NCBI GenBank assembly: GCA_907163375.1
Contig: CAJQUW010010382.1
Location: 85,266-149,265 of the forward strand
Source: Prostheceraeus crozeri
Taxonomy: Eukaryota > Platyhelminthes > Polycladida > Euryleptidae
Length of the DNA: 64,000 nt
Reading direction: 5' to 3'
How positions within the stretch are numbered: the first letter of the stretch is position 1; the number at the start of each line of letters is the position of its first letter. Under the pieces are notes generated by a model. It saw nothing but the letters and a program-made list of their open reading frames with translations, did no database searches and was not told where the DNA came from. The translations under genes were made by a program, and so were the position numbers. Below, piece after piece: positions 18,306 to 62,269 of this stretch.

Positions 18306-18469
18306 TGGAGGTGTGTGACACCAACCCCGACCTGACCAGATTTCGGGTACGTGTCGGGTTTACCAAGTTACTTCGGGTAGATTGTAATATATTCTGGTTT
18401 TATAGGCTGTACTCGCAATCGAGAAACGCACTCCCTTGAATTTCTGCAGATCCGTTAGTTAAAAAAGTA

Positions 18470-25596: not shown

Positions 25597-25985
25597 GCAG
25601 TGGCGTAGCGTGTATAGTATTCACAGTATTCAGTGAATACCTATTTATTTCCACTGTGTAAACTTAATGAATTCTATCCATTCTTAAATATAACCAGCTT
25701 TTTGTCCGTTGAAAAATCTTCTTTATTCAACCAAAAAGTATATAAAAGAAATCTGCATTATTTCAAAGTACATTTATGATAAGAGCTCATTAATTGCATC
25801 AATCAACGCTAATTTGGTCTTTGTATGTCTTTTCGGACATTTTTCCTTTGCTCTAAACTTTCCGAACGTGTTCAATGCGCCATCACACGCCTCCTTGATT
25901 ATCTGCACCATGTCGACAGTTCTGTTATCAGTTTTAATTCTCCCAATATGAGGCTACTATTCAACTTGAGCATCTGAACACCACT
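25597..25985 (-). mobile_element. Possible nested hAT fragment
   Basis: Begins with the hAT-like tip CAGTGGCGTAGCG. The minus strand from about 25950 to 25785 is open and protein-like (containing 'EACDGALNTFGKFRAKEK') and ends in TAA before the tip. I do not recognise the protein. The other end (near ACCACTG at about 25980) is tentative and no target duplication was found. Confidence 0.3.
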
Positions 25986-26042
25986 GGTGAGTATTCCAAT
26001 CGTGAATATTCTCTCATTCATAGGATAACAAGTACTCAATTC

Positions 26043-26878
26043 ATAATCGGACTCGTGTTACTCAAGAAAATTTTCGGAATCACAGAACAACTTTCGATCC
26101 AACTTCAGGCTAAGAAGATAGATTTTGTGGCAGCCATGGAAGAAGTTCAACATGTAACTGACATCTTCAGGTCTTGGAGAAGTGAATCAATTGTATTCAT
26201 CAATGGTTACGCAGAAGCCGTGAAGCTGTTTCAGTGCATTACGGACGATCCTTCTGCAGAGTTCGAAACACCACGACTGACATCAAAGCAAAAATATCGT
26301 TCGAATGTGCCTTCTTAATTTAATCAGCATCTGATTATTACAGAAAAGCTACATGGTATCCTTTGGTTGATGCAATCATCTCACAGCTGAACGATCGCTT
26401 CAGTGAATCTTCAAAAACTGCCCTATCTATGTCAAACTTCATACCAGATCGAGTTGCCGATGTCATAGTGGAAGATATGAAACGTATCTTTGAAAAATAT
26501 AAATCCATACTACCAGATAGTCTTGATACTTGTATGATGGAATTCTACAGATGGCAGCGAAAATGGAATTCAATTCCTAAACAAGATTGTCCTTCAAGCG
26601 TTGTGGAAGTCCTGAAGTCGTGTAATTCTGACCTATATCCTAATATCTATATCCTACTGAAAGTGTTTGCTTCAATCCCAGTAACTTCGGCGACTGCAGA
26701 GCGGTCGTTCAGCAAGCTTCGTCAAGTGAAAACGTACCTCCGTTCAACAATGAGTGAAGCACGTTTGACAGGATTGACTTTGCTGGCAATACATGTACAC
26801 AAAGACATTCCACTGGATTACGACTTTGTGATTGATTTGTATAAGACGGAGCACAACTCACGCTTTAAATTGTAATAC
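26043..26878 (+). pseudogene. hAT transposase C-terminal half (ZMYM6/P52rIPK-like)
   Basis: Two blocks in different frames. The first (to 26318) has helical 'ITEQLSIQLQAKKIDFVAAM' and 'PRLTSKQKYRSNVPS', a linker typical of ZMYM/THAP-type hAT transposases. The second (26347-26875) has 'DAIISQLNDRF' and the hAT dimerisation domain: 'FASIPVTSATAERSFSKLR', 'STMSEARLTGLTLLAIH', ending shortly after. The zinc finger and the first catalytic region are missing and a frameshift lies near 26320, so it is inactive. Confidence 0.85.
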
Positions 26879-27364
26879 GTTTACTTAACTCCTAACGGTC
26901 TCTCGTAAAAACATTAGTGTAAAGCTCAGAAAAATGTTATGTTTTTAGCTTCTTTCTTCAGGAAAAGTATTTTTCAGTGCCTGTATATTGTTCTGTAATT
27001 TCACTGTACTGATAGAGGATATCTGAAGTATACATGTAGAAGATGCGTACACTAATAATACTGTTTGCGTCACTGTTTAGTTTTATAATAATCTGTACCT
27101 GTTCAGTTTTACTGAATTCAATTTTAGGACGTTACGGTATATCAAAATGTGGGATATCAAAATTCGGGATTAGCGAAAATGAATATGAAAGCGAAGATTA
27201 AATTATCGATAATATTACATGCGACTATGATTATACTATTTATGATTATTATATTTCTTTGCGTTGAATATGCATAATCTTCGTGGTAGGCCAAAAAATT
27301 TATTAATTTTTGTACCCCCCCTTTTCAAAATCCTGGATACGCCCCTGAGTGGGAGAGTCAATAC

Positions 27365-37144: not shown

Positions 37145-37713
37145 GGCCGCTGTCACACAGAATAAAGCGTCTTCCATCTTCCATGTCACTCGCCTTTTTG
37201 CACATTCTTCATAAAGTGTCTTCCATAAGGCGCAATGAGGTGACTTTCATCCGCCGTCTTCCGCCTTCCATCTTCCATCTTCCACGTACCGCAGTCACAC
37301 TAGGGAAATCCATCTCCGATACAGTCAGCGCTATTTTTCGCTATTTACTGTTGCTATGACTACTGTCTCTATCCTCGTCCTCGTTCGACATTGTGAACAG
37401 AGGCTGTTTTCTGATTGCTTCTCTTCGCAAATCACAGCTTCCTCTTCCCTCAGACGTCACTTCACGTTGTTCTATTTTTAGAGCAGTCTCAGGACAGAAC
37501 AGGAAATGAACTTCATCAGCCGGATAATTTCATGCCTTATGTCCGATAGACGCCGCCTTATGACTTTTCCTGTGTGACACCTTGATGGACGATGGAAGAT
37601 GACTTGTGGCTGATGACTTTTTCTGTGTGATAGGTTGTATTCTTTTCTACATGCAATTAAAGGGAAATCCCAAATGGAAGATGGAAGACTAATTTTTCTG
37701 TGTGACATCGGCC
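37145..37713. mobile_element. Nested MITE with TGTCACACAG ends
   Basis: Left GGCCGCTGTCACACAGAA and inverted right GGCCGATGTCACACAGAA match at 17 of 18 positions. CTTCCATCTTCCA words follow each end and recur inside (37170, 37270 and inverted at 37670), giving a multi-site subterminal pattern. The GGCC ends resemble the Harbinger-like MITEs of this window, but the flanking triplets (TGA, CAA) do not give a clean TWA duplication. Confidence 0.7.
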
Positions 37714-38094
37714 CAAACAAGTCAAAGAAAATTGCGGCATAAAAGCATAGATTTATAAATAGTATATTGACGGAGATAACCCGAAATCCTTTATTCAGGC
37801 GGGCCCGCTATGTCAGCAACCAGATAGCAGAAATACAATTAGCACACAATGAGTGCTAATGACTTTGTCATGCAGTGCATAATAAGAGCTATTGTCATTC
37901 CTTTTTCACCAAGCAGAAGTCATCAATCTCCTGCTTTTCGATCAATTCATGAAGGTAGACGATTTCTAATCTCGGATCAGTCGGATGACGAAGCAAACGT
38001 CATCCACAATGAATTCACTATCGAATGCAAGACACTCAATATTAGGGACATCTTGATGCCTGCAGAAACCAATCACAGATAGGCTGTCACAAGT

Positions 38095-38250
38095 TAGCGA
38101 TCACTGGCCAAGACTGACTTAACCACAAAATTAGATTGTCTAAGCGCATTACTTTGCTAGAAGTGGAAGCTGATTCAAAGCGATAGCACATGCAGGAACT
38201 TACTAAGTGTGCAAAAAGAAATGGGCTAGTGATGCTGTTAGTGATTTGTT
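38095..38250 (+). repeat. Dispersed repeat R1, copy 4 (in its parent element)
   Basis: Contains AAATTAGATTGTCTAAGCGC, GCACATGCAGGAACTTACTA and GCAAAAAGAAAT in the order seen at 13.1 kb. It is immediately followed by the right terminal repeat at 38254, which ties the R1 family to a DNA transposon. Confidence 0.65.
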
Positions 38251-39249
38251 GGCCTAACAGTGTTTCGGTGCGGTCGCCCCTGATAATTATTGGCACTACA
38301 TTGCTACCTCCTCACTCTTCTACAATAATGTGAACAGTTGAAGTCTTAATGCCATTTGGAACATGATTTTCATTCATTCAAATCTTTCAGTAAACAGGAA
38401 ACATTGTAACTAAATCACGTCAATGATGTCGATTTGAGGCTCTTTAGACACTGAAAGATGAACCTGGGAAAATCTGCATATAACAGGGAGCGGAAACTTT
38501 ATGTTGACACAATTAGACGGATAACAATAGTTATTGGGAGCTATAAACCTTTTGGGCAAGGTAGCCGTCATAATTGCAATATATTCCAATGTAGATGATG
38601 GCAAATCAGATGTAGAACTGTAACAATATTAATTTAATCGAGAAAGTAAGATATTCTTCACTTGAACCACAGAAATCTTGAAAAATTAACACAAATTAAG
38701 TCTCGTTATCAAAAGTTCAGTCTCAAACCTTGTATCACTTTCGAGATCAACATTAGACATGCTGACAGTATTGAAGTCTTGATGACGCCATTGAACAAAC
38801 ATCGCCTGAATTTTCAATGCTGCGATGTTCAACAAAAAACGATCCGCATCGAAGATACGAAAACGTCCCTATCCATAGATCTGGAGAGTCATTATGCAGG
38901 GACCGCGGAGTCTGCCTCAGTGAAGAGCCCGTATTGATGTTCCAAGTACCGCATCAGGGTCCATTTTCGAGGTCCGAGAAGGTCTGCATCTAGGTCCGCC
39001 TCGAAGGTCTGAATAGGATCCATTTATGTTAGGATTCTGTGTTAGGACCCATTTTGATTGTTGAGAGGAGCTGCATCAGGCTCCATTTTCAAAGTCCGAG
39101 AAGGTCTGTAATAGGCTCCAATGCCAGGTCCCTATCCATAGGTCCGGAGAGTCACTATGCAGGCAGCGTCTGTATCACTATATAGTCCACTTTGGTGGTC
39201 CGAGGTCTGTATTAGGCCGGAGGCACACACGATAAGTCATAAGCCGCAA

Positions 39250-41413
39250 GCCATTGAATATTTGTCAGATTCGATCGATCAAGCAAAACTGATCAACTCT
39301 GAGTGCAATATCATTCTTTGTGGTGATTTTAACAAGGTTGATGTCAGTGAAATTATAACTTTTCATGGTTTGGTGAATATTGTGAATGCCCCAACCAGAC
39401 ATAATGCCATCTTGGATATAATTCTTGTTGACGAAAATTTGTGTGAACTATATTTTGATCGTAAGATTTTCCCACCACTTTCAACGTCAGATCACAATGT
39501 CATCTATGTACCAAGTAATCATCGAATTCAAATACCACGCAAAAATGTTACCGTGTACGACTATCGAGATGATAATTTGAAAAAGTTTATAAGGTTTCTT
39601 GAGTCTGTCAAATGGGAAGAAATGTATTCTTCACAAGACGATATTGAGCTAAAGACAAACATATTCTACCGACATTTTAATGATGCATTTGATCTTATAC
39701 CAAGAAGTGTCGTTCAAATATCAGAGAAAGATAAGCCTTGGATCACTCCAGTCGTGAAGCATTTGATACAGAAGCGATGGGATGCCTTCAGATGTGGTAA
39801 TTTTGGATTATATAACCACTACAAACACAAGGTTAAAGAAGAAATTCATCGAGCAAAACTTATGTGGGTTGAAAAGGTACAAAACAGACAGAAAAATGTG
39901 TGGAATGTTGTAAATGAGCATCGAAAGGGACAAAAGACTATAATTAAACATTCTAATTTCACAGCGGAAGTGTTAAATGACTATTTTGTAAGTCTTTTTC
40001 GAGATGATGTTCCAGATGATGCTAATGATAAACATTTAAGTGAAGGAATGGTGTCCTCTTTTTGGAACTGATGAAGTGGAGAGCGCATTGCAAAGATTGG
40101 CCGCAAAGAGCACTGGAAGTGATGAAATCCCCGTAAGACTATTAAAAGCAGCCGCATCAGTTATCTCAAAACCTTTGACACATTTGTTCAATTCGTCTCT
40201 ATCATTACAAACTTTCCCACATCAATGGAAAATTGTAAAAATTGTCCCCATTCCTAAATGCAAGAAACCAAGCATATCTGATTTTCGGCCCATTGCATTG
40301 CTACCTGTAGTTGCAAAAGTGTTTGAAAGACTCATTTTTCGTTGAATTGCAGATAATTTGTTGTGTAACTACGGACTAAATCAGTTTGGTTTTCGACGAA
40401 GCAGCAGTGCGACCTGCTATATGATTGCATTATTCGAAGAAATTCTTCGCAAATTTGAGACAACTAATGCTCGTGCCATTTCATTGATTAGTTTTGATGC
40501 AAAAAAGGCTTTTGAAAGTGTTTCCCATTGACATTTGATTAATACATTTCCCTCTTCGAGTTTACCGCGAGGTTTTATTTCATGGTATCAAAATTATTTA
40601 GATGGAGGGCAACAATATGTGTTTTATAATGAGCGCAGAAGTCAAATGGTACAAATTGCCTCTGGAATACCACAAGGAGCTGTTTTATCTCCGTCACTCT
40701 TTTGTGTTTTCATTTCGTCAGTAAGAGCAGAATTACAACAGAATAATATATATAAGTACGCAGATGATATCATGTTGATGTTGTGTCATTCCGGTGATGA
40801 GGTGTTGAACGAATCCACATCAAAGATAGAGTGGGAAAACATATGTTCATGGACTTCTGATCGTAACTTAGTCCTCAATATGAAAAAATCTTCACATCTT
40901 CTTGTAACAAAATCGCGCAATCCTCCTGAATGTGATTTTCTGTGTTCAGTCCTACCACCAAAAGAGACAATTGAAATCCTTGGATTTAAGTTGAATGCCT
41001 CTTTGACGTGGTCTTCACCTATTGATCAGCGACTGAGAAAAGCGTCGAAGCTAATTCATCTGCTGAGAACCCTAGACCTATAATCACCAAAAAAGATTTA
41101 ATCAACGTGTATCAGTCACTTCATGCTCTCGACTTTGAACTACGGATGCTCTTTGTATGTTAGAGATATTCTGGACAAAGATAAACATCTAATTTTAAAA
41201 TTCGAGAGACGCTGCCACAAAATTATTTGCAGCAGACATTGTAAGCTGAAGTGTTTGCCTGACTTTTTTCATATTCAACGCCAACAAGCTATGAAATTGT
41301 TTCAGTCCGCTTTTAATTGCGATCATGTTCTGAATTCAATCATCCCACATCGTCTTCCAAGTGGGCGGTTGTCACAACCATTCTGCAAGTCTTCGCGTAT
41401 GTGCCACATATGA
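39250..41413 (+). pseudogene. LINE ORF2: endonuclease end plus reverse transcriptase
   Basis: The first block (to 40069) has the endonuclease end 'IILCGDFN', 'TRHNAILDIILV' and 'STSDHNVIYV', then the linker up to the RT. The next frame (40040-41083) has 'IVKIVPIPK', 'DFRPIALLPVVAKVFERLI', 'LISFDAKKAF' (motif A), 'SGIPQGAVLSPSLFCVFI' (motif B), 'YKYADDIMLM' (motif C) and 'LGFKLNASLTW'. A last frame (41123-41413) has the C-terminal thumb and Cys/His-containing tail. Frame break near 40050, TGA at 40343, TGA near 40530, TAA at 41081 and a +1 shift near 41110 disrupt it. Confidence 0.88.
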
Positions 41414-41519
41414 CTATTTTGTATAATGCTATTTTTGACTGTTATTGATTTGATCTTGATTTGCCTGAATGATTTCTATTGATTTGAAAATATACGCTAT
41501 CTTATCTTATCTTATAGGC
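39250..41519 (+). mobile_element. 5'-truncated CR1/Jockey-group LINE with 12-bp target duplication
   Basis: CATAAGCCGCAA occurs at 39238-39249 and 41520-41531 and only once in the other copy of segment X, so the insertion is exactly delimited. It begins inside the apurinic-type endonuclease domain and ends in a (CTTAT)n tail (about 41498-41514). TGA stops, a frameshift near 40050 and another near 41110 show it is a dead copy. Confidence 0.92.
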
Positions 41520-42099
41520 CATAAGCCGCAAATAGAGTTCAAACAGATAAGTTTCAATGAGAGCAGGCATTCAGAATAAGCTACAAGCTTGAAGCAATAA
41601 GCCATCAGACACAAGCCGCCTTTGATTACGGAGGTACATTTGAAAAAGACACTAGTCATAAGTCATAAACCGTCATCCGGTTGTGAATCTATGGACGATG
41701 ATCTTCAATAGAACCGACATTGTGATACAACGCGTCATTCTTTATGCTTGTGCTTTATACTCCTGCAAAAATTAGGAAAATATAATTTATTTTCTTCTTC
41801 TGTCCGGTTGTCATGAGAAATTATTTTGCCAAAAATGGCTTATGACTTATGCATTATTCTGTGTGCCTCCGGCCTTAGGGTCTGTTTGAAGGTCCGAGTG
41901 AGTCATTAGGCATTAGTCCGCAGAGCCACTATACAGGTACCATTGAGTCTGTCTCCCTATATAGTCCGCCATGAAAGAGACCGCACATAATATGTCCACT
42001 ACCGTACAAAGAATTATTGGGTTCAAGAATGTTAAGCAACGAAGGGTTCTATATGGAACATCTTCAAAGTTGTGTGTGGCACTCCCGTTCTACTCAATG

Positions 42100-42546
42100 G
42101 TTCTACAATTGGTTGCATTTATCTTTTGCGATATTGCAGAAGTTTCATATCTCATAGATTCCTTAAATTGCCATTCACAAATAAAATGCAGGATGGATTT
42201 TAGATTTATCGTACTTCTTGTAGTTAAAAGCGTCAAAATGCAGATAGAAATCCATGGGCCTATCAAGAAGCAAGTTTTTACAACGACCTTTGCAATAACT
42301 TTCTTACCATTCATGGCAGAAGCATCGAATGAAATACAGGCGCAAGGGGTTGCTGAAGGAGTCTGTCCAAAATATTTGAATATAATCTTAAGATTTTCGG
42401 TCGACCAGAAGTGAACATGTTCATTAAGATGAAAAACGCATCTGTCTGAAAAGTCAGATTTCTCAAAAACGCTGGATTTTTAGCAAACTTGTGTTACACT
42501 ATCTCGGAACTTATGATCGTCATCTCCATCCAAAAATTCCTGGCAA
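42100..42546 (-). pseudogene. Mariner/IS630-like transposase relic (segment X, left copy)
   Basis: The minus strand from 42546 reads 'CQEFLDGDDDHKFRDSV', a stop, then 'FSDRCVFHLNEHVHFWSTEN', resembling the FCQ-x-(F/L)L ... F-x-DE-x-x-FHL-x-G-x-VN ... W-x-x-ENP region around the first catalytic Asp of these transposases. Asp is kept but Glu is replaced. The relic is cut at 42546 by the pogo-like transposon; in the right copy it continues upstream. Confidence 0.55.
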
Positions 42547-45500
42547 GTAGTAGGTTAGTTGATACATTTTTTGGTTTTTTGCATTTTTTAGGAAAATTTT
42601 AGCAGATATAAAAATTCTAAAATAACATTCGAGTTCTCTATCGTATTAGGAAGCTAGAAAACATAGACACTTTCAGCTCATAGGTTGTTAAGGAACTGCC
42701 ACATAGGTTTTAAAAAGTCCATCAAAACGTATCAACTAACCTGGTAGGGCAGGTTTGTTGATACACTCGACAAGGATAGTTGATACATCTTTCTTTGAAT
42801 TTATACATCTTATCATTTGCTCCATGTTATGCCTACTTGAATACGAAATGAAAAATAACTTATCAAAAAAGTTGTAGCTTTTTACTCTAGACTAGATACA
42901 TCTGAAAATGTGGCACTGGGATCCATCATTTTAGTCAACGATTGCTCGTCATAGCCTATAGGCCTGTCCAAGCTTAGCCCTGGCTAGGTCCATAGGTAGC
43001 GTACTTTACGATGTCTTATCATTTATCAAAATATTTTTAATGCATGTATACGTGTGTTCATGTGTAGGTCTACGCATAGCTTTCTTTGTTTATTGCATCG
43101 ATAAGCATGAAAGATAGGCCTTCTCTACATCTAATACTTCGCAAACTCAATTCCATTTCTATAAGTCAACAAAGGCAACATATTTGAACATGCTTTTAGG
43201 CATTCTATCTGCTATCAAAAATAACAAAAACGGTCGCGTTTGAGCCTAAACAAATTTCTACAAAAAACACAGGCATGCATACCTAAGTTCATATTCCAAA
43301 GTTAGATAGATCATGGTCAAATTTCAAATGATGAGCTCGTCGCGCCGAGCCACCAACTACCTCAGGTCTTGGCAGTTTGGTAAGAATGTCATCAATAAAG
43401 AAAGCGTCTGTGTCATCTTCATCTGGAATAAAAAGATCACTTTGAAATGGCACTTTCTTTAAGAAAATGCCCTTAAATTCTACGTTATCCTTCTTACATC
43501 AATACGGGCAACGTAGTTCATGTGTCTTGATTTGCCTAGAACTCTGACTACAACGAAGTCTCCAATGTCTATTTCTTCGCTTTCAAACTCCATGTCAGGA
43601 GGAGAATTCTCAGAATCTTCTTCATACTCAGACGTTCTGATCAGTTTCCTTCGTCGAATCTGCCTTCTTCTTTCGTTCTTGATTTGTCTCCTCAACTTCT
43701 CGAAGGACCGGTGAGGAGGTCAGTATTCGTGTCTTGCCCTTGCGAGATCGTTTGGTAGATCGCTTTCGTGGCGGAGCCTTCGGTATCGGCAGGACTTCGC
43801 TTGCCGACACGTGAACTCTCTCGATTAGAGGGATCGGTTCTTCTTCGCTTGTGTCTTCGTCGCTCGAGTTCCCCATTTCAGTAGGCCTCTCAGGATCTGT
43901 TAATAAAGAAGGTGCGAAGTCGCTATCGGTGAATAACTCTCGGTTCAATGGGTGGATCCCTGTGCTCTGAAAACCTGACAAGATGTTTCTTGGTGAAATG
44001 GCGGACATTTGAGCCGTAGCAACGAGACCAGGAATATCATATATTGTCAGTGCCTTTCCTTGGTTGGACCTGAGTCAAGAGTCCGTTGCACTGTTGAAAG
44101 CGCTCTTGAAAGGTCCGTACACAGATTTGTCAAGCGGTTGAAGACGGTGAGAAGTATGAGGAGGAATGGTTAGCACGACAATGCCGTTGCTTCGTGCAAA
44201 CTTGATTGTTTCCAGAGACACATGTGATTCCTGATTGTCAAGAATCAGTAGAACTTTGCGGTCCTTTGAACAACGAGTGTGTCTAACAAAGTGTTCCAAG
44301 TATATCAGAAAAATACTTTCGTTCATCCAACCTGATCTATTTGCCCGACCCACACTCCCAGGGGGGCCGCCTCGCACGAAATGGTCTCGAAAGTGTACTC
44401 GCGGGAAGACAAACATTGGAGGTATGAAGTTGCCTGATGCACTGATTGCGTACACAACGGTGACCAATTCACCTCTCTCAGCTGATGTTAATGAGCCCAC
44501 CCGCTTCCGACCTCTTTCAGAAACGATGGCACGTGGTTTCTGTACTGTAGTGCAACCCGTTTCATCCAAATTATAGATATCTTCCGGCTTGAAATGAAAC
44601 TCATCCATATCGCGGGTCAAATTGTCATAAAACTCACCAACCTTCTGACGGTTGAAAGCAGTAGCCCTACCTAAAGATTCAGGCGAACGGATGATTAAGG
44701 ATTGTCTTCGCTTGAATCCTGCCCACCAGGCCATTCCTGCCTTTCCATTTTCATGCCAAGATTGAGGGATCTTAATGTTATTCTTTTTAGCAAACTCGTA
44801 GGCCAATTCGCGACATTTGGTCAGAGATAATCCGAAGAACATGTCTGATAACAGTTTTATGTGACCGCCTAGCTCATTTTCTAAGTCCGATGGAAAGACG
44901 TAATGACCATTCGCTACTGCCGCGTACCCGGAAGTTTCAGGAAAAGACTCAGAGTTTCTAGATTTCACCAAGAACCGATAAAGAGTCATTTTATCGATGT
45001 TCAAATCTGTCGCCGTCTTACGAATCGATTGACCCTGACTAACTAGTTCCGCAGCTTTTATTAACAGATCGTGAGGGGTCCTAGTAGCTCGATTAGTCTT
45101 GCGTGTATAGAATTGCGGCATTTTTCTGCAAAAAAAACAATACTAAGATGACTATTTACCGCAGGTATATTGGATATCTTTATAGTTTTGCGTAGCAATT
45201 ATCAGATGCTAAATTCAAAAAGAAGGTGTCGCTTTAAATAATTTATAGAAGCAGGCTTACCCTTCAAAGCTTCAGTGTAAACTATGTTAATCACACAACT
45301 TGTAGAATAGGCATACCTAGGCAAATTTGCAGACATCTTTCTGGGTCATGCAAAGTCGTTTATTTTATGTTTTTATGAGGTCAATGAACATTTGCAAGAA
45401 TGTAGAATGTCTTAAACTACCACCTGAACCTGTTTATGTAGGTATTTGGTTATAGTCTATGTATGTTGTGGCAACACCCACCCGAAATTCCAGCTTCACT

Positions 45501-45924
45501 CACAGCTGCAGCAAGATGAGGTTAGTTGATACGCGTCTCAACTGACCTGCACGGCACTGTATCAACTTGCCCAACAGGCTGTCATCACAGAAAACCCCTC
45601 CTCACGAATAGCATGTTATCTAATTGCTATGCTGTGTGTACTTTTAAACAAGGGCTTAGTGGCAACTGTCATTTGAAATATTAGAGGCAGCCATATTTGG
45701 TTGCAGTCAGGTGATAGCACGAAGTTCGGGTACTCACCTGATTTTTACTCCTAGCGGCGAAAAAGTGATTGTTGATTCTCCTTCCGCGTGATTAGTTCAT
45801 AAGCCGTTGTCACTAACACCAAAGAACCAATAACATAGGTCTACAAAAGCATCCTACGGCATGACCTCGAAGTCGCTACTTTGTGTGAGAAAAGTCGACT
45901 GTATCAACTAACCTACTCCTCCCC
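42547..45924 (-). mobile_element. pogo-like DNA transposon between the two copies of segment X
   Basis: Terminal inverted repeats AGTAGGTTAGTTGATACA at 42549-42566 and its exact complement at 45900-45917. The core GTTGATAC recurs subterminally: 42729-42742 (inverted), 42751-42764 and 42776-42786 on the left; 45519-45532 and 45559-45568 (inverted) on the right. These look like transposase-binding sites. The element fills exactly the gap between the end of the left and the start of the right segment X (2 and 7 spare bases). A clean TA duplication is not visible, which fits a recombinant rather than a simple insertion. Confidence 0.88.
43289..45121 (-). pseudogene. pogo-group transposase (HTH plus DDE_1), nearly full length
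   Basis: ATG at 45121. Residues 15-55 form a psq-type helix-turn-helix (ending 'KMTLYRFLVKS'); 85-150 resemble a CENP-B-type DNA-binding half ('AGMAWWAGFKRR'). The catalytic Asp are D186 in 'YNLDETG', D295 in 'LILDNQESH' and D331 in 'RLQPLDKSVYGPFK', a DD35D spacing. The usual DNH has become DNQ. An in-frame TGA at 44075-44077 replaces the Trp expected before 'LRSNQGKALTIYDI'. The frame continues with 'GFQSTGIHPLNRELFTDSDFAPS', then shifts near 43690 and back near 43500, giving 'IDIGDFVVVRVLGKSR' and 'LPRPEVVGGSARR' to a stop at 43289-43291. One nonsense codon and two compensating shifts are therefore the only clear breaks. Expressed protein would bind the GTTGATAC sites. Confidence 0.9.
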
Positions 45925-46993
45925 TAGCCGTCATAATTGCAATATATTCCATTGTAGATGATAGCAAATCAGATGTAGAACTGTAACATTCTTAATTTAA
46001 TCGAGAAAGTAACATATTCTTCACTTGAACCACAGAAATCTTGAAAAATTAACACACATTAAGTCTTGTTATCAAAAGTTCAGGCTCAAACCTTGTATCG
46101 CTTTTGAAATCAACATTAGACATGCTGACAGTATTGAAGTCTTGATGACGTCATTGAACAAACATCGCCTGAATTTTCAATGCTGCGATGTTCAACAAAA
46201 AACGATCCGCAGCGAAGATACGAAAACGTCCCTATCCATAGATCTGGATAGTCACTATGCAGAGACCGCGGAGTCTGTCTCAGTTAAGAGCCCGTATTGA
46301 TGTTCCAAATACCGCATCAGGGTCCATTTTCGAGGTCCGAGAAGGTCTGCATCTAGGTCCGCCTCGAAGGTCTGAATAAATCTGTGTTAGGGTCCATTTT
46401 GATTGTTGAGAGGAGCTGCATCAGGCTCCATTTTCAAAGTCCGAGAAGTCTGTAATAGGCTCCGATGCCAGGTCCCTATCCATAGGTCCGGAGAGTCACT
46501 ATGCAGGCACCATAGAGTCTGTCTCACTATATAGTCCACTTTGGTGGTCCGAGGTCTGTATTAGGCCGGAGGCACACACGATAAGTCATAAGCCGCAAAT
46601 AGAGTTGAAACAGATAAGTTTCAATGAGAGCAGATATTCAGAATAAGCTACAAGCTTGAAGCAATAAGCCATCAGCCACAAGCCGCCTTTGATTACGGAG
46701 GTACATTTGAAAAAGACACTAGCCATAAGTCATAAGCCGTCATCTGGTTGTGAATCTATGGACGATGATCTTCAATAGAACCGACATTGTGATATAACGC
46801 GTAATTCTTTGTGCTTGTGCTTTATACTCCTGCAAAAATTAGGAAAATATAGTTTATTTTCTTCTTCTGTCCGGTTGTCATGAGAAATTATTTTGAAACA
46901 ATTGTACCTGTTTGTAATTTTATAAATAAAAAGCGCACAGAATGCTTTAGAAGTCATAATAAAGTTTATTGAAATTAGGAAGAAAAATGTAAA

Positions 46994-47024
46994 CCTGACA
47001 TGTTTCGACTGGTCTTGTCAAAGG
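46994..47024 (-). ncRNA. Degenerate hammerhead-like motif in the Penelope 3' trailer
   Basis: The minus strand reads TTGACAAG, ACCAG, TCGAAAC, ATGTC, with ACCT/AGGT flanks: the spacing of a CUGAUGAG...CGAAAC...GUC hammerhead core, with several core substitutions. It lies downstream of the ORF of the left Penelope copy, where PLE hammerheads are known to occur. Activity is unlikely. Confidence 0.4.
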
Positions 47025-47130
47025 TAACCCAGCATGTGAAATTACATTGAAAGATAGACATTTTTTAAGAAGGAGAAGGTTGAGATACAGGTCAACACGC
47101 GATAGCAGCGGCAGACTGTGAGTCACCCGA

Positions 47131-48043
47131 TTACCATGGCAAGCGAAGATTAATCACATGGTCCTTTTGCTTGCACAGGTTGGGATTATCACGTCTAATA
47201 AACAATGCCTCGAGGATACGTAAAATGCGGTCATTGTAAGCGTGGCATACAATCTCAAACTTGCTGATAGGGTCATTCGGAACACTACAGCAACTGAGCA
47301 CATGTTCAGTAATTGCAGAGCGAGAAATTCCTAAATGACCATTTAAGAACCACCTGGGTATGTGCTCCCGCGCTCGAACTGTCAGGGGTCGTGACGTCCG
47401 TCCAATATAGGTTGATCCACAACCACAACGAAAAGAATAAATAACAGAAGACGTGGCGGCCACTGGCAGACGATCTTTAGGAGAAGCAACAGGAATACAG
47501 TTGGTCTTAAAAATAATTATGGGTTTTGCGGCAGGAGCAAACTTGGCCAGCAGTTCATCGATCGATTTGCGAATGAAAAGACTAGATTTGTCACCATAGA
47601 AAGGCAAGTTGACATAAACAGCCTTTCTTTCAGCGGTGGCAACAGAAACATTATTGATCTCAGTGACTTCATATTGATCGATGAAGTGCTCAGGATAAGC
47701 ATTAGACTTCAAAATAGCACGAATGGTATTGAATTCTTGGTATAACATTTCATCAGAACAAATACGAAGCGCACGAATAAATAGAGAACGGACAAGGCCT
47801 CTTTTATAGGCAATGGGCACGAAACTGTGAAAACTCATGTAAACACCTGAAAAAGTTGGTTTACGGTGCACTGTGGTACACAGTTTCCCGTCAGGCATGC
47901 GTTGTATAGAAACATCAAGAAACGGTAGTCTGCCCTGCTCTTCACATTCATAAGTAAAATTTATATGAGGATGAAAGCTATTGAAAATGTCAAGTAAAGA
48001 TTCTCCTGCCTCCCTGCTCCTCACAAGAGCGAACGTGTCGTCA
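47131..48043 (-). pseudogene. Penelope ORF, truncated copy 1 (RT end plus GIY-YIG)
   Basis: Open from the VDD active-site codons to a stop at 47131, with no internal stop. Order: RT palm end 'LPFLDVSIQRMPDGKL', thumb, then 'SSVIYSFRCGCGSTYIGRTS', 'REHIPRWFLNGHLG', 'SAITEHVLSC', 'ILEALFIRRDNPNLCKQ' and the terminal 'LRLPW'. C-terminal GIY-YIG marks a canonical Penelope/Poseidon element. Over the shared ~297 residues it differs from copy 2 at a single residue (Ala here, Val there). Confidence 0.9.
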
Positions 48044-49079
48044 GGTAGACGGTGTAGCCATGGGCAGTGCTCTCGGCCCTCTCTTTGCCAACATTTTCAT
48101 GGGAAACCTTGAGAGTAGTTTGTCTAGTCATATTGATTCCTTGTGTCATGTGTATTATCGTTATGTTGACGACACGTTCGCTCTTGTGAGGAGCAGGGAG
48201 GCAGGAGAATCTTTACTTGACATTTTCAATAGCTTTCATCCTCATATAAATTTTACTTATGAATGTGAAGAGCAGGGCAGACTACCGTTTCTTGATGTTT
48301 CTATACAACGCATGCCTGACGGGAAACTGTGTACCACAGTGCACCGTAAACCAACTTTTTCAGGTGTTTACATGAGTTTTCACAGTTTCGTGCCCATTGC
48401 CTATAAAAGAGGCCTTGTCCGTTCTCTATTTATTCGTGCGCTTCGTATTTGTTCTGATGAAATGTTATACCAAGAATTCAATACCATTCGTGTTATTTTG
48501 AAGTCTAATGCTTATCCTGAGCACTTCATCGATCAATATGAAGTCACTGAGATCAATAATGTTTCTGTTGCCACCGCTGAAAGAAAGGCTGTTTATGTCA
48601 ACTTGCCTTTCTATGGTGACAAATCTAGTCTTTTCATTCGCAAATCGATCGATGAACTGCTGGCCAAGTTTGCTCCTGCCGCAAAACCCATAATTATTTT
48701 TAAGACCAACTGTATTCCTGTTGCTTCTCCTAAAGATCGTCTGCCAGTGGCCGCCACGTCTTCTGTTATTTATTCTTTTCGTTGTGGTTGTGGATCAACC
48801 TATATTGGACGGACGTCACGACCCCTGACAGTTCGAGCGCGGGAGCACATACCCAGGTGGTTCTTAAATGGTCATTTAGGAATTTCTCGCTCTGCAATTA
48901 CTGAACATGTGCTCAGTTGCTGTAGTGTTCCGAATGACCCTATCAGCAAGTTTGAGATTGTATGCCACGCTTACAATGACCGCATTTTACGTATCCTCGA
49001 GGCATTGTTTATTAGACGTGATAATCCCAACCTGTGCAAGCAAAAGGACCATGTGATTAATCTTCGCTTGCCATGGTAA
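48042..49079 (+). pseudogene. Penelope ORF, truncated copy 2 (RT motif B onward plus GIY-YIG)
   Basis: Starts in RT motif B ('QVDGVAMGSALGPLFANIFM'), then 'YYRYVDDTFALV' with the catalytic YVDD, RT end, and the same C-terminal GIY-YIG as copy 1, ending at TAA 49077-49079. The frame is intact, but about half of the RT (fingers and motif A) is missing, so it cannot be a functional element. The 3' trailer is cut about 65 bases after the stop, whereas copy 1 keeps a longer trailer. Confidence 0.9.
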
Positions 49080-49419
49080 TCGGGTGACTCACAGTCTGCC
49101 GCTGCTATCGCGTGTTGACCTGTATCTCAACCTTCTCCTTCTTAAGAAATTATTTTGCCAAAAATGGCTTATGACTTATGCATTATTCTGTGTGCCTCCG
49201 GCCTTAGGGTCTGTTTTGAAGGTCCGAGTGAGTCATTAGGCATTGGTCCGCAGAGCCACTATACAGGTACCATTGAGTCTGTCTCCCTATATAGTCCGCC
49301 ATGAAAGAGACCGCACATAATATGTCCACTACCGTACAAAGAATTATTGGGTTCAAGAATGTTAAGCAACGAAGGGTTCTATATGGAACATCTTCAATGT
49401 TGTGTGTGGCACTCCCGTT

Positions 49420-49932
49420 CTACTCAATGGTTCTACAATTGGTTCCATTTATCTTTTGCGATATTGCGGAAGCTTCATATTTCATAGATTCCTTAAATTG
49501 CCATTCACAAATAAAATGCAGGATGGATTTTAGATTTATCGTACTTCTTGTAGTTAAAAGCGTCAAAATGCAGATAGAAATCCATGGGCCTATCAAGAAG
49601 CAAGTTTTTACAACGACCTTTGCAATAACTTTCTTACCATTCATGGCAGAAGCATCGAATGAAATACAGGCGCAAGGGGTTGCTGAAGGAGTCTGTCCAA
49701 AATATTTGAATATAATCTTAAGATTTTCGGTCGACCAGAAGTGAACATATTCATTAAGATGAAAAACGCATCTGTCTGAAAAGTCAGATTTCTCAAAAAC
49801 GCTGGATTTTTAGCAAACTTGTGTTACACTATCTCGGAACTTATGATCGTCATCTCCATCCAAAAATTCCTGGCAACACACTTGTTTATCAGGATGAAGG
49901 TTATTTTTCTTTAGAATTCTAAACACTGAGAG
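49420..49932 (-). pseudogene. Mariner/IS630-like transposase relic (segment X, right copy)
   Basis: Contiguous with the upstream motif missing from the left copy: 'SVFRILKKNNLHPDK' directly precedes 'CQEFLDGDDDHKF', then 'FHLNEYVHFWSTENLKIIF'. The order helix-turn-helix end, FCQEFLD, FHLNGYVN-like, W-x-x-EN matches IS630/mariner-group transposases. Stops and missing catalytic residues make it a relic. It is cut upstream by the MITE at 49939. Confidence 0.62.
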
Positions 49933-54046: not shown

Positions 54047-54652
54047 GTATTATTGAGCAGTCTGCAGAGTCTTCACAAAGAAGCATCAGCAGTGGTCGAA
54101 ATTTGAAAATATGGAAATTCACTGATAGAAATGTGAAAATTTTTATCACAAGATGTGAATGATCGTCGAGAAAGTTATGGAAACTTAAGATATCGGAGAA
54201 ATTACTGCAAATATAACTTCAAAATAGAAAAATGGCTTTTGATTTTCAATTCTATTGTCAGTAGTAAACTATTTGTGAGAAGGGCACATTTGCAAGCTTT
54301 TTTTTGAAAATTTCTTCCTTTGAAAAGTGGCAATGCTGTGACGAAAAAACGTCCGGTAACAACAAAATTACAGTGGTTTGATTTGAGGGTTTCAATTTCT
54401 TTCGTGTAATGAGGTATGGAAGAATTTCGTCATTCAAAGTCATGTCATGAAATCATTTCAATATTAGAAGACCTTGAGATATTGACTTTTACATACATCG
54501 ACAACAGCTAGCAAAAGACATGTAGATTCTCAAATACTCTCTAAATTTGTAGTCGCACAATTGACTGCCGGAAACATTTTCCACTCATAATTTTTTACCA
54601 CCTAAACAAATGCAGCCATCCAAGAGTCTAAAGAAAAACGAATCTCACGCGC

Positions 54653-55845
54653 TTTAATCGAATTTCAAATTTTCAAAAACAAAGGTAGTCACAACTCACA
54701 TTTTTCATTGCCGAAAATTCTGTAGAGCTACAGCAATGCTCCACGGTACCTCAATCACCTTCACATCAAGTTTCATCAAAATCCAAACAGTGCCCTGTCC
54801 TACAGAGAATTTATAAGCTAAAAATAACAGCCTGCGCAACTGATTTTCAAATTTTCAAAAACACAGCTAGCCACAACTACTGTTCCTCGATGCAGACAAT
54901 TCCGTAGAGCTACACCAACGTTCTATGGCATCTCACTCACATTTGAGTCAATTTTTATCAAAAGCCATGCATTGCTTTGTCCTACAGGGCCTACACAAGA
55001 TGACCTCTTTAATCGAATTTCAAATTTTCAAAAACAAAGGTAGTCACAACTCACATTTTTCATTGCCGAAAATTCTGTAGAGCTAAAGCAATGCTCCACG
55101 GTACCTCTATCACCTTCACATCAAGTTTCATCAAAATCCAAACAGTGCCCTGTCCTACAGAGAATTTATAAGCCAAAAATAACAGCCTGCGCAACTGATT
55201 TTCAAATTTTCAAAAACACAGCTAGTCACAACTACTGTTCCTCGATGCAGACAATTCCGTAGAGCTACACCAACGTTCTATGGTATCTCACTCACATTTG
55301 AGTCAATTTTTATCAAAAGCCATGCATTGCTTTGTCCTACAGGGCCTACACAAGATGACTACTTTAATCGAATTTCAAATTTTCAAAAACAAAGGTAGTC
55401 ACAACTCACATTTTTCATTGCCGAAAATTCTGTAGAGCTACAGCAATGCTCCACGGTACCTCAATCACCTTCACATCAAGTTTCATCAAAATCCAAACAG
55501 TGCCCTGTCCTACAGAGAATTTATAAGCTAAAAATAACAGCCTGCGCAACTGATTTTCAAATTTTCAAAAACACAGCTAGTCACAACTACTGTTCCTCGA
55601 TGCAGACAATTCCGTAGAGCTACACCAACGTTCTATGGCATCTCACTCACATTTGAGTCAATTTTCATCAAAAGCCATGCATTGCTTTGTCCTACAGGGC
55701 CTACACAAGATGACCTCTTTAATCGAATTTCAAATTTTCAAAAACAAAGGTAGTCACAGCTCACATTTTTCATTGCCGAAAATTCTGTAAAACTGCACCA
55801 ACGTTCTGTGGCATCTCAATCATATTTACATCACGTTTCGTTGAA
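54653..55845. repeat. Dimeric satellite: 355-bp higher-order repeat of two ~173-182-bp monomers
   Basis: TTTAATCGAATTTCAAATTT recurs at 54653, 55008, 55363 and 55718: three units of exactly 355 bp plus a partial one. Each unit contains two diverged halves, both starting with TTCAAATTTTCAAAAACA (offset 182, then 173 bases) and both containing TAGAGCTACA and TTGTCCTACAG-like or CTGTCCTACAG words. Copies of the same half in different units are nearly identical, while the two halves differ clearly: the hallmark of higher-order repeat amplification. Confidence 0.93.
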
Positions 55846-55980
55846 ATGGCCTACTGATTGAAAGTTTGCCGTTTTCAGACACACTGCCATCCACAACTCC
55901 TTCGCATCTTTGCGGACTTTTTCTGCTGCATGATATGCATTCTGTAGTGAGGTCAGATGCGACCACCCGTTTTTGTTGAG
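55846..55980. other. Short linker between satellite and hairpin
   Basis: Partial, diverged continuation of the satellite followed by unrelated sequence; no gene. Confidence 0.4.
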
Positions 55981-56047: not shown

Positions 56048-56529
56048 TTTAATTTCCCATTGTATTTCCGAAAATTCAAATTGTTGAAAATAATCAAAAT
56101 AAGTTTTAGTCTTGTGATGTAATTCTACAAAAAAAGAGCACCAACATGGCACCGGAACCTAAAATGACATCAGGAAAAGAGCAAAAATGTTTGGAAGATG
56201 CCAAGAAGACTTCATTCAGAATAGTGCTCACTGAAAACTAGGTTTTCTACATAGTTGTGCAATCTTTCATAGTACATTTTCCCAAAGCCACCCTCTAAAA
56301 CCATACTCTCCAAAAATGAGTTTCATACCGTATTATACACGAGCTTGCACAGTAGAGTTAGCAAAAAAGTATTTCAATCCGTTTGTTTAAATAATACACT
56401 ATCAATTCAGTTTTCAGCATGCCTCATCGTTGACAAAAAAGATACACAGCACCTTTAAAACGTCAAGAAAAGCATGAGTGATTCTGTCTCAATTGTAAGC
56501 AAAGCCTGCCACACTTTCACATGACGATT
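56048..56529. other. Non-coding spacer
   Basis: No repeat or gene recognised apart from decayed edges of the next array. Confidence 0.4.
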
Positions 56530-58560
56530 CTCGAAGCGGCACCACAAAAACGGCAACCAACCGGTGACTCTGACAAGAAAAACAATTCATGCAATCATGG
56601 AATGTTTTCTGTCAATGTTTGTGTCGTGCAATCATCGAACCAATTTTGAAACTTTTACATATTGTCTTCGCAACACAGCTTCATGACGTCAGCAAGACAT
56701 TTGCTACCCTAGCTGAATTGCAACCAAAGTCTGTTCATACCCTCTCATAATAATACTCGATAGGGTGCTACAACGCAACAAGCAACGGACAGCAAGGACC
56801 TGTGAAACAACTCATGAAATCATCGGAATTTTCCATCATCTCTCGAATTTCACGTCATTTTCTTCGCAACATGATTTCACATTGTCAAGAAAAACATTAG
56901 TGATTCCGCTTCAATTGCAACCAAAGTCTGTTCATACCCTCTCATAATAATACTCGATAGGGTGCTACAACGCAACAAGCAACGGACAGCAATGACCTGA
57001 GAAACAACTCATGCAATCATCTTAATTTTCCATCATCTCTCGAATTTTTTTCACGTCGTTTTCTTCGCATCAGGAATGCAACTTCATGGCTTCAGTAAAA
57101 CATTAGTGATTCCGCTTCTTTTGCAACCAGAGTCTTTTCATACCCTCTTATCACCATTCTCTAAACGACTTTGCAAACCAACATCCAACCGGCGACTCTG
57201 ACATGAGAAACAACTCATGAAATCATTGGAATTTTCCATCATCTCTCGAATTTCACGTCGTTTTCTTCGCAACATGATTTCACATTGTCAAGAAAAACAT
57301 TAGTGATTCCGCTTCAATTGCAACCAAAGTCTGTTCATACCCTCTCATAATAATACTCGATAGGGTGCTACAACGCAACAAGCAACGGACAGCAATGACC
57401 TGAGAAACAACTCATGCAATCATTGGAATTTTCCATCATCTCTCGAATTTCACGTCATTTTCTTCGCAACATGATTTCACATTGTCAAGAAAAACATTAG
57501 TGATTCCGCTTCAATTGCAACCAAAGTCTGTTCATACCCTCTCATAATAATACTCGATAGGGTGCTACAACGCAACAAGCAACGGACAGCAATGACCTGA
57601 GAAACAACTCATGCAATCATCGGAATTTTCCATCATCTCTCGAATTTCACGTCATTTTCTTCGCAACATGATTTCACATTGTCAAGAAAAACATTAGTGA
57701 TTCCGCTTCAATTGCAACCAATCTGTCCACACCTTCTTATCACCATTCTCTAAACGACTTTGCAAACCAACATCCAACCGGCGACTCTGACCTGAGAAGC
57801 AATTCATGCAATCATCGGAATTTTCCATCATCTCGTATTTTTTTCAAGTCGTTTTCTTCGCATCATGAATGCAACTTCATGGCTTCAGTAAAACATTAGT
57901 GATTCCGCTTCTTTTGCAACCAGAGTCTTTTCATACCCTCTTATCACCATTCTCTAAACGACTTTGCAAACCAACATCCAACCGGCGACTCTGACATGAG
58001 AAACAACTCATGCAATCATTTGAATTTTCCATCATCTCTCGAATTTTTTTCACGTCGTTTTCTTCGCATCAGGAATGCAACTTCATGGCTTCAGTCAAAC
58101 ATTAGTGATTCCGCTTCTTTTGCAACCAATCTGTCCACACCTTCTTATCACCATTCTCTAAACGACTTTGCAAACCAACATCCAACCGGCGACTCTGACC
58201 TGAGAAACAACTCATGCAATCATTGGAATTTTCCATCATCTCTCGAATTTCACGTCGTTTTCTTCGCATCATGACTTCACATCGTCAAGAAAAACCTTGA
58301 TGATTCTGGCTCAGTTGCAAACAATCTGTCCACACCTTCTCATGATAATACTCCACAGGGTGCAACAACGTAACACGCAGCAGACAGCAATGACCTGAGA
58401 AACAACTCATGCAATCATCGGAATTTTCCATCATCTCTCGAAATTAACGTCATTTTCTTTGCAACACAACTTCACAACGTCGGCAAAACATAAAATGATC
58501 CTGCTTCACTTGCAACCAAAGTAGGTCCACACCTTCTCATGATCATTCTTAGGAGCACGC
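56530..58560. repeat. Satellite array, 195-206-bp monomers of two types
   Basis: The anchor TTGCAACC (TTGCAAAC in one unit) falls at 56718, 56915, 57121, 57318, 57515, 57712, 57914, 58120, 58315 and 58510, giving units of 197, 206, 197, 197, 197, 202, 206, 195 and 195 bp. Two interior versions alternate: type A (ATACTCGATAGGGTGCTACA) and type B (CATTCTCTAAACGACTTTGC). Order by unit start: A, A, B, A, A, B, B, B, A-like. A diverged copy precedes the array. All share ACAACTCATGCAATCAT and TTTTCCATCATCTC words. No coding function. Confidence 0.92.
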
Positions 58561-59204: not shown

Positions 59205-60760
59205 GAGTTGTGTGGGTAAGTTTAGTTGTGATTGAGGCAGGATCGTCAAAGTTTTGGCCACCGCTGTGACTGCCATTTTCAGATGCAGATCCACAATTGA
59301 AATGATGCTGTGAGCATAGATCTACACTGTACTGGACCAAGTACTTTATCTCGGAGAAGTGGTTCTCAAGCTAGAGTTATCCTTTGCTCTTGTGTTTTGA
59401 AACGCTAAGGAGAATGATACTGAGGTTTTGGGCAACTGCGGTATTGATTGAGGCAGTAGGCCTACTAACAAAGTTTTTGGCTGACAGCGTGAATATGATC
59501 GAAAACAATTTTTTGTAAAAATGGTGAAAATGTGTGATGATTGCGTGAAATTTTCTCCGGCCAGATTTGCCGGTTAACGCTTGTGTTTTGATACTCCGGA
59601 GATAAAATTGTGAATGTATGGGGTAAGTTTGGTTTCAATTGAGGCAAATTCGCAAAGTATTCGCTGTAGATGTAAAGTTGTTCTTGAAAATTATAGTTTT
59701 GTAATTGGTGAAAACGTGTGATGATAGCATGCAGTGCATGTCAGGCCTGAGTTGTGCTGTTGTCTTTCGATGTGCTCTGCAGAATGATAGTGAGTTGGTT
59801 GCAGTTGAGACAATACTATCAACGTTTTGACTGACAGTGTAAAGAATTGTGCGAAAAATACAATTTTTGCAGAATTGGTAAAGGCGTGTGTTGATTGCGC
59901 GAGGTGCTTCCCATGCCTGGCTGATGCCAGTTTGGTTCGAATTGAGGCAGCATTGACAAGGCCTTTAGGTGTCGATGCGCTGCCTATTCAGATACAGATC
60001 CACAACTGAAACTGTAGCCGGAAATGCATCCATCCGACCAAGCACTTTTACTCGTAGAACCGCTTTTCCGCCCAGAGTTCCCATTTTCCTCTGCATTGTG
60101 AAACGCTCTACTAAATGACACTGAGAAGATGTGGGACAAGTTTGATTGTGATTGAGGTATTTCTGTCTGTCTGTGTACACAGACCAGCTATGTTGTTAAA
60201 GATATTCTTGTCATATTGGTGAAGGCTTGCTTAGAATGCGTGAAGTGAGCTAGGTTGGTGGTGATTGAAGCAGTATTGACAATTTTTTGCCTGACACAGG
60301 AGGTTCATGGTCATCTGTGGGGAAAAATTATTAAAAGTGAACTCCTTTTAGTAGGACGAACGTTTTCACAAAGTACGGTAGGCAAAATATGCATGCATGC
60401 GCATATACAAAGCCAACGTTTCTCGCAGTCTCTGTCAACTTCAAGTTGCAGTAGAAAAACTACTGCACCCTGAAGCTGACAGACTGTCGAAACTTAGACC
60501 TTATGTTTGACTTACCTTACTTTATTGAAACATTCATTCTACTAAGGGAAGTTGACGTCTTATATTTCTCCACACAAATGAGTATTGGCAAATTTGACTG
60601 TCGGTGTGCTGTAAAGTGATAATCTTTTTTGTAAAATTGGTGAAAACATGTAGTTATTGCGTAAAATGTTTCTCAGGACAGATTTGTCCGTTGGGTGTTG
60701 CTGTTTGAAGCGATCTAGAGAATGACACTAAGAAGGGATGCACCAACATTTTAAGCGAAA
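59205..60760. repeat. Old degenerate tandem array, ~110-216-bp spacing
   Basis: The anchor ATTGAGGCAG (or a close variant) recurs at about 59231, 59447, 59638, 59804, 59941, 60151 and 60263, with associated AATTGGTGAAAACGTGTGAT and AGAATGATACTGAG words. Divergence and uneven spacing show it is older than the two arrays to its left. A block without these words (about 60300-60580) interrupts it and contains the 60426-60486 hairpin. Confidence 0.75.
60426..60486. repeat. Imperfect hairpin with ~28-bp arms
   Basis: CAGTCTCTGTCAACTTCAAG...GCAGTAG pairs with CTACTGC...CTGAAGCTGACAGACTG around a 5-A loop, with a few mismatches. It lies in the block that interrupts the older array and may be the core of a small inserted element. 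Confidence 0.65.
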
Positions 60761-61120
60761 TTATCTATAATTTGAATGCTTTGGGTATTGATGATTTATT
60801 CAGTGAACTTTTTTATTAGGCAGTGGATATTACACGCGGTATTGAAGCCGGTACAAAAGTTTTCCATATCTATCAACACGCCTCATGTTTACTACCTACA
60901 AGCATGGCTGCAGATCATTCAATGTGACAAAAAAATTGCGTCAGAATGTGTCTTGACTCGCTGCTTGTCTTGCTTAGCCTTGCTTGGTTTATCTTCGTCT
61001 TCGATGTTTTATGAGATACTTCGTGATTTCTTTAGCGAAGCAAACTTATTTCCCTACGGTGTTTCGGAAACTCCTAATGTAACAAAGTTTAATTTAGTGC
61101 TTTATTTAATGTAGATACTT

Positions 61121-62020
61121 TCTTACCTGCTTATCTATTAGGTAGTCAGTCTTGCTGGCTAATTCGGTGTAATAGCCACCAGATTAAAATTGTTCCAGCT
61201 CAGCCAGTGTAATAGCCATTACCTATTAATTTTGTCCTAAAAGTCAGCCGGAAAATCGATCTCTCTCCAAACGTGACATATTTTGTACGCTCGCTCCACT
61301 TGCGAGTCGTACATGAATTATTGAACGCAAAAATACCCTCTTTTATGAGCTTTCTGGATTTTGTGTACTTTATTTGTTTTCATTTTGACCTTCGATGTAT
61401 TTTAGCCGCCACTACATGCATTTCTCTTTGTAGAAATAGTTGAATGAACGACCTACTTTCAATTGTTGTCGATACACTATTTAACGAAATGCTATATTTA
61501 CTAAAAAATGCCGAAACGATCTCCACGATGTCATAAATAACCGCAAATTGTTCAAAATCGATTGTAACGATGCTGTTCGGTGTATGCTTGCATTACACCA
61601 GCTGATGTCGTTCTTAAAACACATTAAATTCACCAAACTATATTTATATCATCAATTTCGTTAAGTCTGAAGTACAATTTCACTATTCAACTTGTTTATT
61701 ATATTAGAGCACGTGTCATTTCAGATAAATATTTTGCAGCTGACTGAAATTAAACTTCGCTGATTATTGTTACCATAGTGACGCTTACAAATGTAGCAGC
61801 AGTGAATTGCGGCGGACTAAAACAATTAATATCTTAGATAGGGATTCTCCATGTAAAACAAGAATTTTTGGCTGATGATTATGCGTTAAATATAAAAGTG
61901 TCCAAAGAGATACATATCAAGATAAAATACTCATACCTTAATATGTATTTGAGCAAAAATCTGGACCTCTACCCTCTATTTGCACGGTTCAGCCCTTATT
62001 GTCGACTTAGCACCCCGACT
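61121..62020. other. Right terminal region of the 53-62 kb unit
   Basis: Non-coding. Holds the inverted counterpart of 53465-53545 (at 61150-61245) and the right terminal repeat (about 61895-62020). Nothing else recognised. Confidence 0.5.
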
Positions 62021-62269
62021 ATATAATAATATATACATTGCGTGGTCGTGGTAGTGTGCAGACGTGCTAGTTCTCGCTCTTGCTGCTTGACAAAACCTTT
62101 TCTCGCTTGACGGTGTCAAGACAGTCACTATAGTGATATTTTATATCATTCGAATGGCCATAGCATCGTGCATTTCATTGTCATCAAAAAAATCGTCGGC
62201 ATTGCTTCTTTTTCCGGTTATTTTCATTTTTTCGTGTTTGCCAATTGGATAGAGCTCAGATTTACAGTA

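What the first reader, a model, noticed from the sequence alone, without database searches (positions are those of the whole stretch)
38562..49876. Direct duplication with a pogo-like transposon exactly at the breakpoint
Two near-identical ~1.7-kb segments in direct orientation flank a pogo-like element with only 2 and 7 extra bases. The left copy keeps the original left flank. The right copy keeps the original right flank: a transposase relic runs uninterrupted through 49876 there but is cut at 42546. This is the outcome expected from ectopic crossing-over between two allelic insertions of the same transposon at the two ends of segment X, or from alternative transposition or re-replication. 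Seeing a transposon at a duplication junction with both empty sites readable in the same locus is unusual.
Basis: partly seen in the sequence, partly recalled or inferred. Interest (0 to 1): 0.82.

Follow-up and report, generated by a model that had tools for sequence, protein, structure and literature searches.

The report
Transposon at a tandem duplication joint
A 1.7-kb piece of DNA is duplicated head-to-tail with a jumping gene between the copies, and a related contig in the same assembly shows the locus without the duplication, so the joint can be read as a break at one end of the jumping gene mended to the wrong place.

Summary
X (about 1.7 kb without later insertions) occurs twice in direct orientation, 38562-42546 and 45925-49876, around one pogo-like transposon. 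Contig C784 of the same assembly is collinear with the window (96.2-98.5% in eight long pieces) and carries X once, between the same flanks, without pogo or either nested retroelement: the arrangement before duplication.

Sixty fetched end loci of this pogo family define its ends. The left end has lost GGGGAGG and its TA, and is fused to the last base of X through GT. The right edge of X has no TA in C784 or in the right copy.

This counts against a crossover between two insertions and against canonical alternative transposition. Better supported: pogo inserted once, left of X; its left end broke and was joined to the far end of X on another chromatid, perhaps the homologue. Closest precedents are P-element hybrid element insertion and maize Ac/Ds duplications. 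A new variant of a known kind. No reads were seen, and C784 could be a paralogue.

The parts
38562..42546 (+). Left copy of X (XL); TA at its left edge (38562-38563) is an empty pogo target, with no footprint
   Evidence: left junction GGGCAAGG|TAGCCGTC identical in C784
39255..41513 (+). LINE-like insert nested in XL only; absent from XR and C784 (edges uncertain by about 2 bases)
   Evidence: (RVT_1 in the 40532-41083 ORF)
42547..42548 (+). GT at the joint of X end and truncated pogo end: filler, or part of a TIR variant AGTAGTAGG seen in 1 other (L057) of the 30 left-end loci
42549..45924 (-). pogo-like transposon, 3376 bp; the minus-strand frame with the DDE_1 match ends at a stop at 44075-44077; left terminus lacks GGGGAGG and TA, right terminus complete
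45925..45926 (+). TA next to the intact pogo end: the native TA of the left edge of X
45925..49876 (+). Right copy of X (XR), running on into the original right flank
46896..49145 (.). Penelope-like inverted insert nested in XR only, 12-bp flanking direct repeat GAAATTATTTTG
   Evidence: the Penelope label is recalled, only RVT_1 was tested

Best explanation
A pogo-like element inserted once, in the normal way, at the TA that marks the left edge of X. Its left terminus then broke 7 bp inside the terminal repeat (or was cut at the end and nibbled), and the broken end, carrying pogo-X-right flank, was end-joined to the right edge of X on another chromatid that had no pogo at that TA. The product is left flank - X - pogo(truncated) - X - right flank. 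Shown in the sequence: a single-copy arrangement on C784, the normal right end on the native TA, the truncated left end, the absence of a TA at the other joint, and the empty TA of the left copy. Inferred: the order of events, that transposase made the break, that end joining sealed it, and that the partner was the homologue and not a sister chromatid or a paralogous locus.
For: Single-copy locus on C784 with both edges intact. Family termini: TA followed by GGG[G/A]AGG in 23 of 30 fetched left-end loci and CTCCT[C/T]CCC|TA in 21 of 30 right-end loci, the window's own ends counted in both. The window copy is intact on the right and lacks 7 bp plus TA on the left. The left edge of XL is empty and identical to C784, without footprint. 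XL-XR differences: 41 of 955 aligned sites in alignment columns 1-1000 (two of the 41 lie just outside X), against 21 of 990 for XL-C784; in columns 1001-1733 XL-XR is 7 of 731 and C784 is the odd one. Of 73 informative sites, 14 where XL is odd were left out of the test; the other 59 (XR odd / C784 odd) split 30/11 and 2/16 along X, and 0 of 20000 shuffles of site order reach that split. So XL and XR are not simply two copies of one template.
Against: No reads were available, so the joint rests on one assembled contig. C784 may be a segmental duplicate and not the other haplotype: in 2 of 2 control flanks (C1548, C4382) no full-length second copy was found, and right of window 52010 the fetched C784:10001-27033 shows no collinear match to the window. 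The mosaic pattern could also come from gene conversion after the duplication, and linked sites make the shuffle test optimistic. The loss of the pogo terminus could have happened after the duplication. Other family members also have imperfect ends (7 of 30 left, the window's own among them, and 9 of 30 right did not fit the pattern), so a truncated end alone is not rare.
Confidence: 0.58

Rival explanations
1. Aberrant transposition in the strict sense (hybrid element insertion between homologues or sisters, or reversed-ends transposition): transposase joined the left pogo end to a target at the right edge of X, and the terminus eroded later or was joined without strand transfer.
For: A target duplication on one side only of the element at the joint is as described for natural maize hAT duplications, one of which has a 12-bp TIR deletion. 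The pogo-free left copy fits insertion into a homologue.
Against: No TA at the new joint in C784 or XR. In the maize reversed-ends cases each copy begins with an element; here the left copy has none.
Confidence: 0.17
2. X was first duplicated in tandem by an unrelated event; pogo later inserted at a TA lying by chance at the joint, and then lost 7 bp of its left end.
For: XL-XR divergence in the first kb is as large as between contigs, so the duplication could be old. GGCAA occurs both at the right edge of X and just left of the TA, a possible microhomology for a simple tandem duplication.
Against: Needs pogo to land within a few bases of the joint and then a further terminal loss.
Confidence: 0.13
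3. One reading: unequal crossing over between two allelic pogo insertions, one at each end of X.
For: The overall layout is the one expected.
Against: The right edge of X has no TA in either readable empty site, and the pogo left end is truncated and not flanked by TA.
Confidence: 0.04
4. Assembly artefact: two haplotypes joined through the shared pogo.
For: One contig only; no reads.
Against: Three different X sequences exist (XL, XR, C784), with different nested insertions, which two single-copy haplotypes cannot give. The CTGGCAA/GTAGTAGG joint has no long overlap that would cause a misjoin.
Confidence: 0.08

Closest known systems
Drosophila P-element hybrid element insertion and flanking duplications (Preston, Sved, Engels 1996; paper not held; known here from passages and reference lists and from recall)
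   Same: By recall: element kept between two copies of adjacent DNA, produced at one element end, with a sister or homologue as partner
   Different: Different superfamily; here the new joint has no target duplication and the terminus is truncated
Maize Ac/Ds reversed-ends transposition duplications and the natural dhAT-Zm13 case (PMC3744419: passages; section 10)
   Same: Direct duplication with an element at the joint, target duplication on one side only, and in dhAT-Zm13 a 12-bp TIR deletion in one element
   Different: In the maize cases of section 10 each copy begins with an element; here the left copy is empty and only one element exists
Composite insertions from transposition-mediated re-replication, including bz1-m4-D6856 (PMC4270019, passages)
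   Same: End-joined breaks, and truncated transposon sequence joined to truncated duplicated flank
   Different: Starts from two nearby element ends and leaves target duplications; a single element is seen here

Membership tests
pogo superfamily (IS630-Tc1-mariner group) | DDE_1 transposase domain | tested here: met
   DDE_1 E 2.7e-19, 69.9 bits against a cut-off of 22, profile positions 9-130 of 177
pogo superfamily (IS630-Tc1-mariner group) | Helix-turn-helix DNA-binding domain | tested here: inconclusive
   HTH_7 and HTH_23 match below their curated cut-offs
pogo superfamily (IS630-Tc1-mariner group) | TA target duplication and short TIRs (at most 40 bp in most families, PMC7386202 passages) | tested here: met
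   TA|GGGGAGGAGTAGGTTAGTTGATACA family terminus; the window copy has it on the right only
pogo superfamily (IS630-Tc1-mariner group) | Transposase falls in the pogo clade of a tree | not tested
   no tree built
Ectopic recombination between two insertions | TA target and intact element end at both joints | tested here: not met
Hybrid element insertion / alternative transposition | Target-site duplication at the new joint | tested here: not met
   no TA at CTGGCAA|CACACTTG; pogo left end lacks 7 bp
Hybrid element insertion / alternative transposition | Partner chromatid free of the element (recalled feature for exchange with a homologue) | tested here: met
   TA at 38562 empty and without footprint
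Hybrid element insertion / alternative transposition | Transposase-made cut at the element end | not testable with these tools
   needs experiment

The most novel reading that the evidence does not exclude
A pogo-superfamily transposon in an unidentified eukaryote (probably an animal, by inference) made a tandem duplication by a one-ended cut at its own terminus and out-of-register joining to the homologous chromosome, so that single elements, not pairs, can seed inter-homologue duplications without leaving a second target duplication.
Probability: 0.22. Interest if true: 0.55.

Novelty: new variant of a known kind. Interest (0 to 1): 0.4.

Why it matters
Transposons at duplication breakpoints are often put down to crossing over between two copies. 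Here the joint, both empty sites and the transposon's family termini can be read together, and they point to a break at one end of a single element. The same reading test (is each end intact, and does each joint have a target?) can be applied to other duplications in assembled genomes.

Tried and rejected
X as a dispersed repeat: not supported. The first 956 bases of XR match at full length only C8601 (itself) and C784, with XL matching in two pieces; the other 37 places listed match only part of the last third of the query (from about base 626) at 70-82% (40 of 914 candidates scored). The 1444-base query across the right edge finds X again only on C8601 and C784 (40 of 329 scored).

Flank duplication as a habit of this family: on 18 contigs both a left-end and a right-end locus were held. 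Only the window shows a direct repeat of left flank in right flank within 1.5 kb (1 of 18). Five contigs whose two ends span over 20 kb may not be one element; without them it is 1 of 13. Three of the 13 (C3143, C10576, C12626) share their flanks, so they are not independent, and duplications longer than the held flanks could be missed.

Microhomology GGCAA: found at the right edge of X and just left of the TA; a 5-mer of the set taken from that flank occurs at 45 of 10000 positions nearby. It was chosen after looking, so it is only suggestive.

Control for haplotypes: flanks of C1548 and C4382 gave no full-length second copy, 0 of 2, so the assembly is not generally doubled. C784 is collinear further left too: window 10000-12000 matches C784:61172-63067 at 86% for query 1-1661 and 96% for 1781-2001. 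To the right collinearity stops at window 52010: C784:10001-27033 was held and does not match the window there apart from a short inverted repeat piece; C784:1-10000 was not seen.

Literature: eight answered searches; two searches found 0 papers with all terms. No paper on this locus appeared in those listings. The organism was not identified.

Full report
What is there. Self-comparison of the window confirms two direct copies of a segment X: 38562-42546 (XL) and 45925-49876 (XR). After the nested insertions are set aside, X is about 1.7 kb. XL carries a LINE-like insert (39255-41513) and XR a Penelope-like inverted insert (46896-49145) with a 12-bp direct repeat at its ends. Between the copies lies a pogo-like DNA transposon, 42549-45924, with a minus-strand frame that matches DDE_1 (E 2.7e-19) and ends at a stop at 44075-44077.

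The locus without the event. The window is contig C8601:85266-149265 of a 2.05-Gb assembly. Contig C784 is collinear with it: eight aligned pieces of over 700 bases between window 20700 and 52010, 96.2-98.5% identical and about 20 kb in all, plus 91.9% for the first part of XR. Further left, window 10000-12000 matches C784 at 86% and 96% in two pieces. Right of window 52010 the C784 sequence that was held (10001-27033) has no collinear match. The left flank (37400-38559) has two full-length matches, these two contigs (40 of 4370 candidates scored), and X is found only as XL, XR and on C784. On C784, X occurs once (C784:32755-34479, minus strand), between the same flanks, without pogo and without either nested element. 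C784 is most simply the other haplotype, but 2 of 2 control flanks elsewhere gave no full-length second copy, so a segmental duplicate is possible. In either case it shows the arrangement without the duplication.

The joints. Thirty left-end and thirty right-end loci of the pogo family were read, the window's own included. The family begins TA|GGGGAGGAGTAGGTTAGTTGATACA (TA plus the first seven bases in 23 of 30, one base variable) and ends CTACTCCTCCCC|TA (CTCCTCCCC then TA in 21 of 30, one base variable). In the window the right end is complete and is followed by TAGCCGTC. That TA is the native TA at the left edge of X, as C784 and XL show (GGGCAAGG|TAGCCGTC). The left end is not complete: the sequence passes from the right edge of X (CTGGCAA) through GT into AGTAGGTTAG, so GGGGAGG and the TA are missing. 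One other of the 30 left-end loci (L057) has AGTAGTAGG, so GT may be part of the element and not filler. At the right edge of X, C784 and XR read CTGGCAACACACTTG, without TA.

What this says about mechanism. Pogo families other than Fot and Fot-like ones have TA target duplications (PMC7386202, passages). A crossover between two allelic insertions therefore needs a TA and an intact end at both joints; the left joint has neither. The same holds for canonical alternative transposition, which leaves a target duplication at the new joint (PMC3744419, passages and section 10). One normal insertion at the left TA followed by a break in or at the left terminus, joined to the far edge of X on another chromatid, accounts for both joints and leaves only GT as filler or variant. 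The left copy's TA is empty and without footprint, so that chromatid had never carried the element, or had lost it without a trace. Imperfect ends also occur in other family members (7 of 30 left, the window's own among them, and 9 of 30 right did not fit the pattern), so loss of the terminus after the duplication cannot be excluded.

Which partner? Along X the relationships change. In alignment columns 1-1000, XL differs from C784 at 21 of 990 sites but from XR at 41 of 955 (two of the 41 lie just outside X); XR differs from C784 at 41 of 955. In columns 1001-1733, XL and XR differ at 7 of 731, while C784 differs from them at 21 and 18 of 730. Of 73 informative sites, the 14 where XL is odd were left out; sites where XR is odd against sites where C784 is odd split 30/11 and 2/16, and 0 of 20000 shuffles reach that, though linked sites are not independent. 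So XL and XR do not look like two identical copies that aged together: the first part of XL came from, or was converted by, a C784-like sequence. This fits an exchange between homologues, but later gene conversion would look similar.

Is it real? No reads could be checked. Three distinct X sequences and separate nested insertions argue against a simple haplotype misjoin.

How usual? On 18 contigs where a left-end and a right-end locus were held, a direct repeat of the left flank in the right flank was seen only in the window (1 of 18; 1 of 13 without five contigs whose ends span over 20 kb). It is thus not a habit of the family in this sample. Close precedents exist: a natural maize duplication in which one dhAT element lacks 12 bp of a TIR and has a target duplication on one side, and re-replication products with truncated Ds (PMC4270019, passages). 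The window case differs in having a single element, no element before the first copy, and a pogo-type transposon. I rate it a new variant of a known kind.

Noticed in passing
46896-49145: Penelope-like insert made of two inverted arms (47060-48043 and 48167-49150, 99.8% identical) around a short centre.
   Followed up: partly
L011-L014 (C784, reverse-strand positions 17302-20882 of the joined 40 kb): C784 has a 3.6-kb insertion 56 bp right of X, ends GCCGATTTCACGAAGCGG / CCGCTTCGTGAAATCGGC, flanked by CTTAGAG; absent in the window.
   Followed up: partly
C12570, C5366, C12998, C3710 (L022/L047, L017/L052, L029/L056, L038/L049): Left and right ends of this pogo family span 20-27 kb on four contigs: either separate partial copies or very large composite elements.
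   Followed up: no
inside X, e.g. C784 copy, 399 bp: Short inverted-repeat element GGCCGGAGGCACACA...TGTGTGCCTCCGGCC flanked by TTA, PIF/Harbinger-like by recall; 37 other places listed in the genome at 70-82%, a lower bound.
   Followed up: partly
L048 and L016 (C1548): The 13-mer TTCTACAAATATA stands on both sides of an otherwise normal pogo insertion.
   Followed up: no
54652-55847 and 56462-58549: Two tandem arrays, units about 355 bp and about 200 bp judged from self-BLAST offsets.
   Followed up: no
60700-62025: Repeat present at 94-99% on at least 39 other contigs: a recently spread element.
   Followed up: no
L064-L067 (C4184, C3143, C10576, C12626): Four contigs share a pogo insertion with the same left flank: a shared repeat, haplotypes or segmental duplication.
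   Followed up: no
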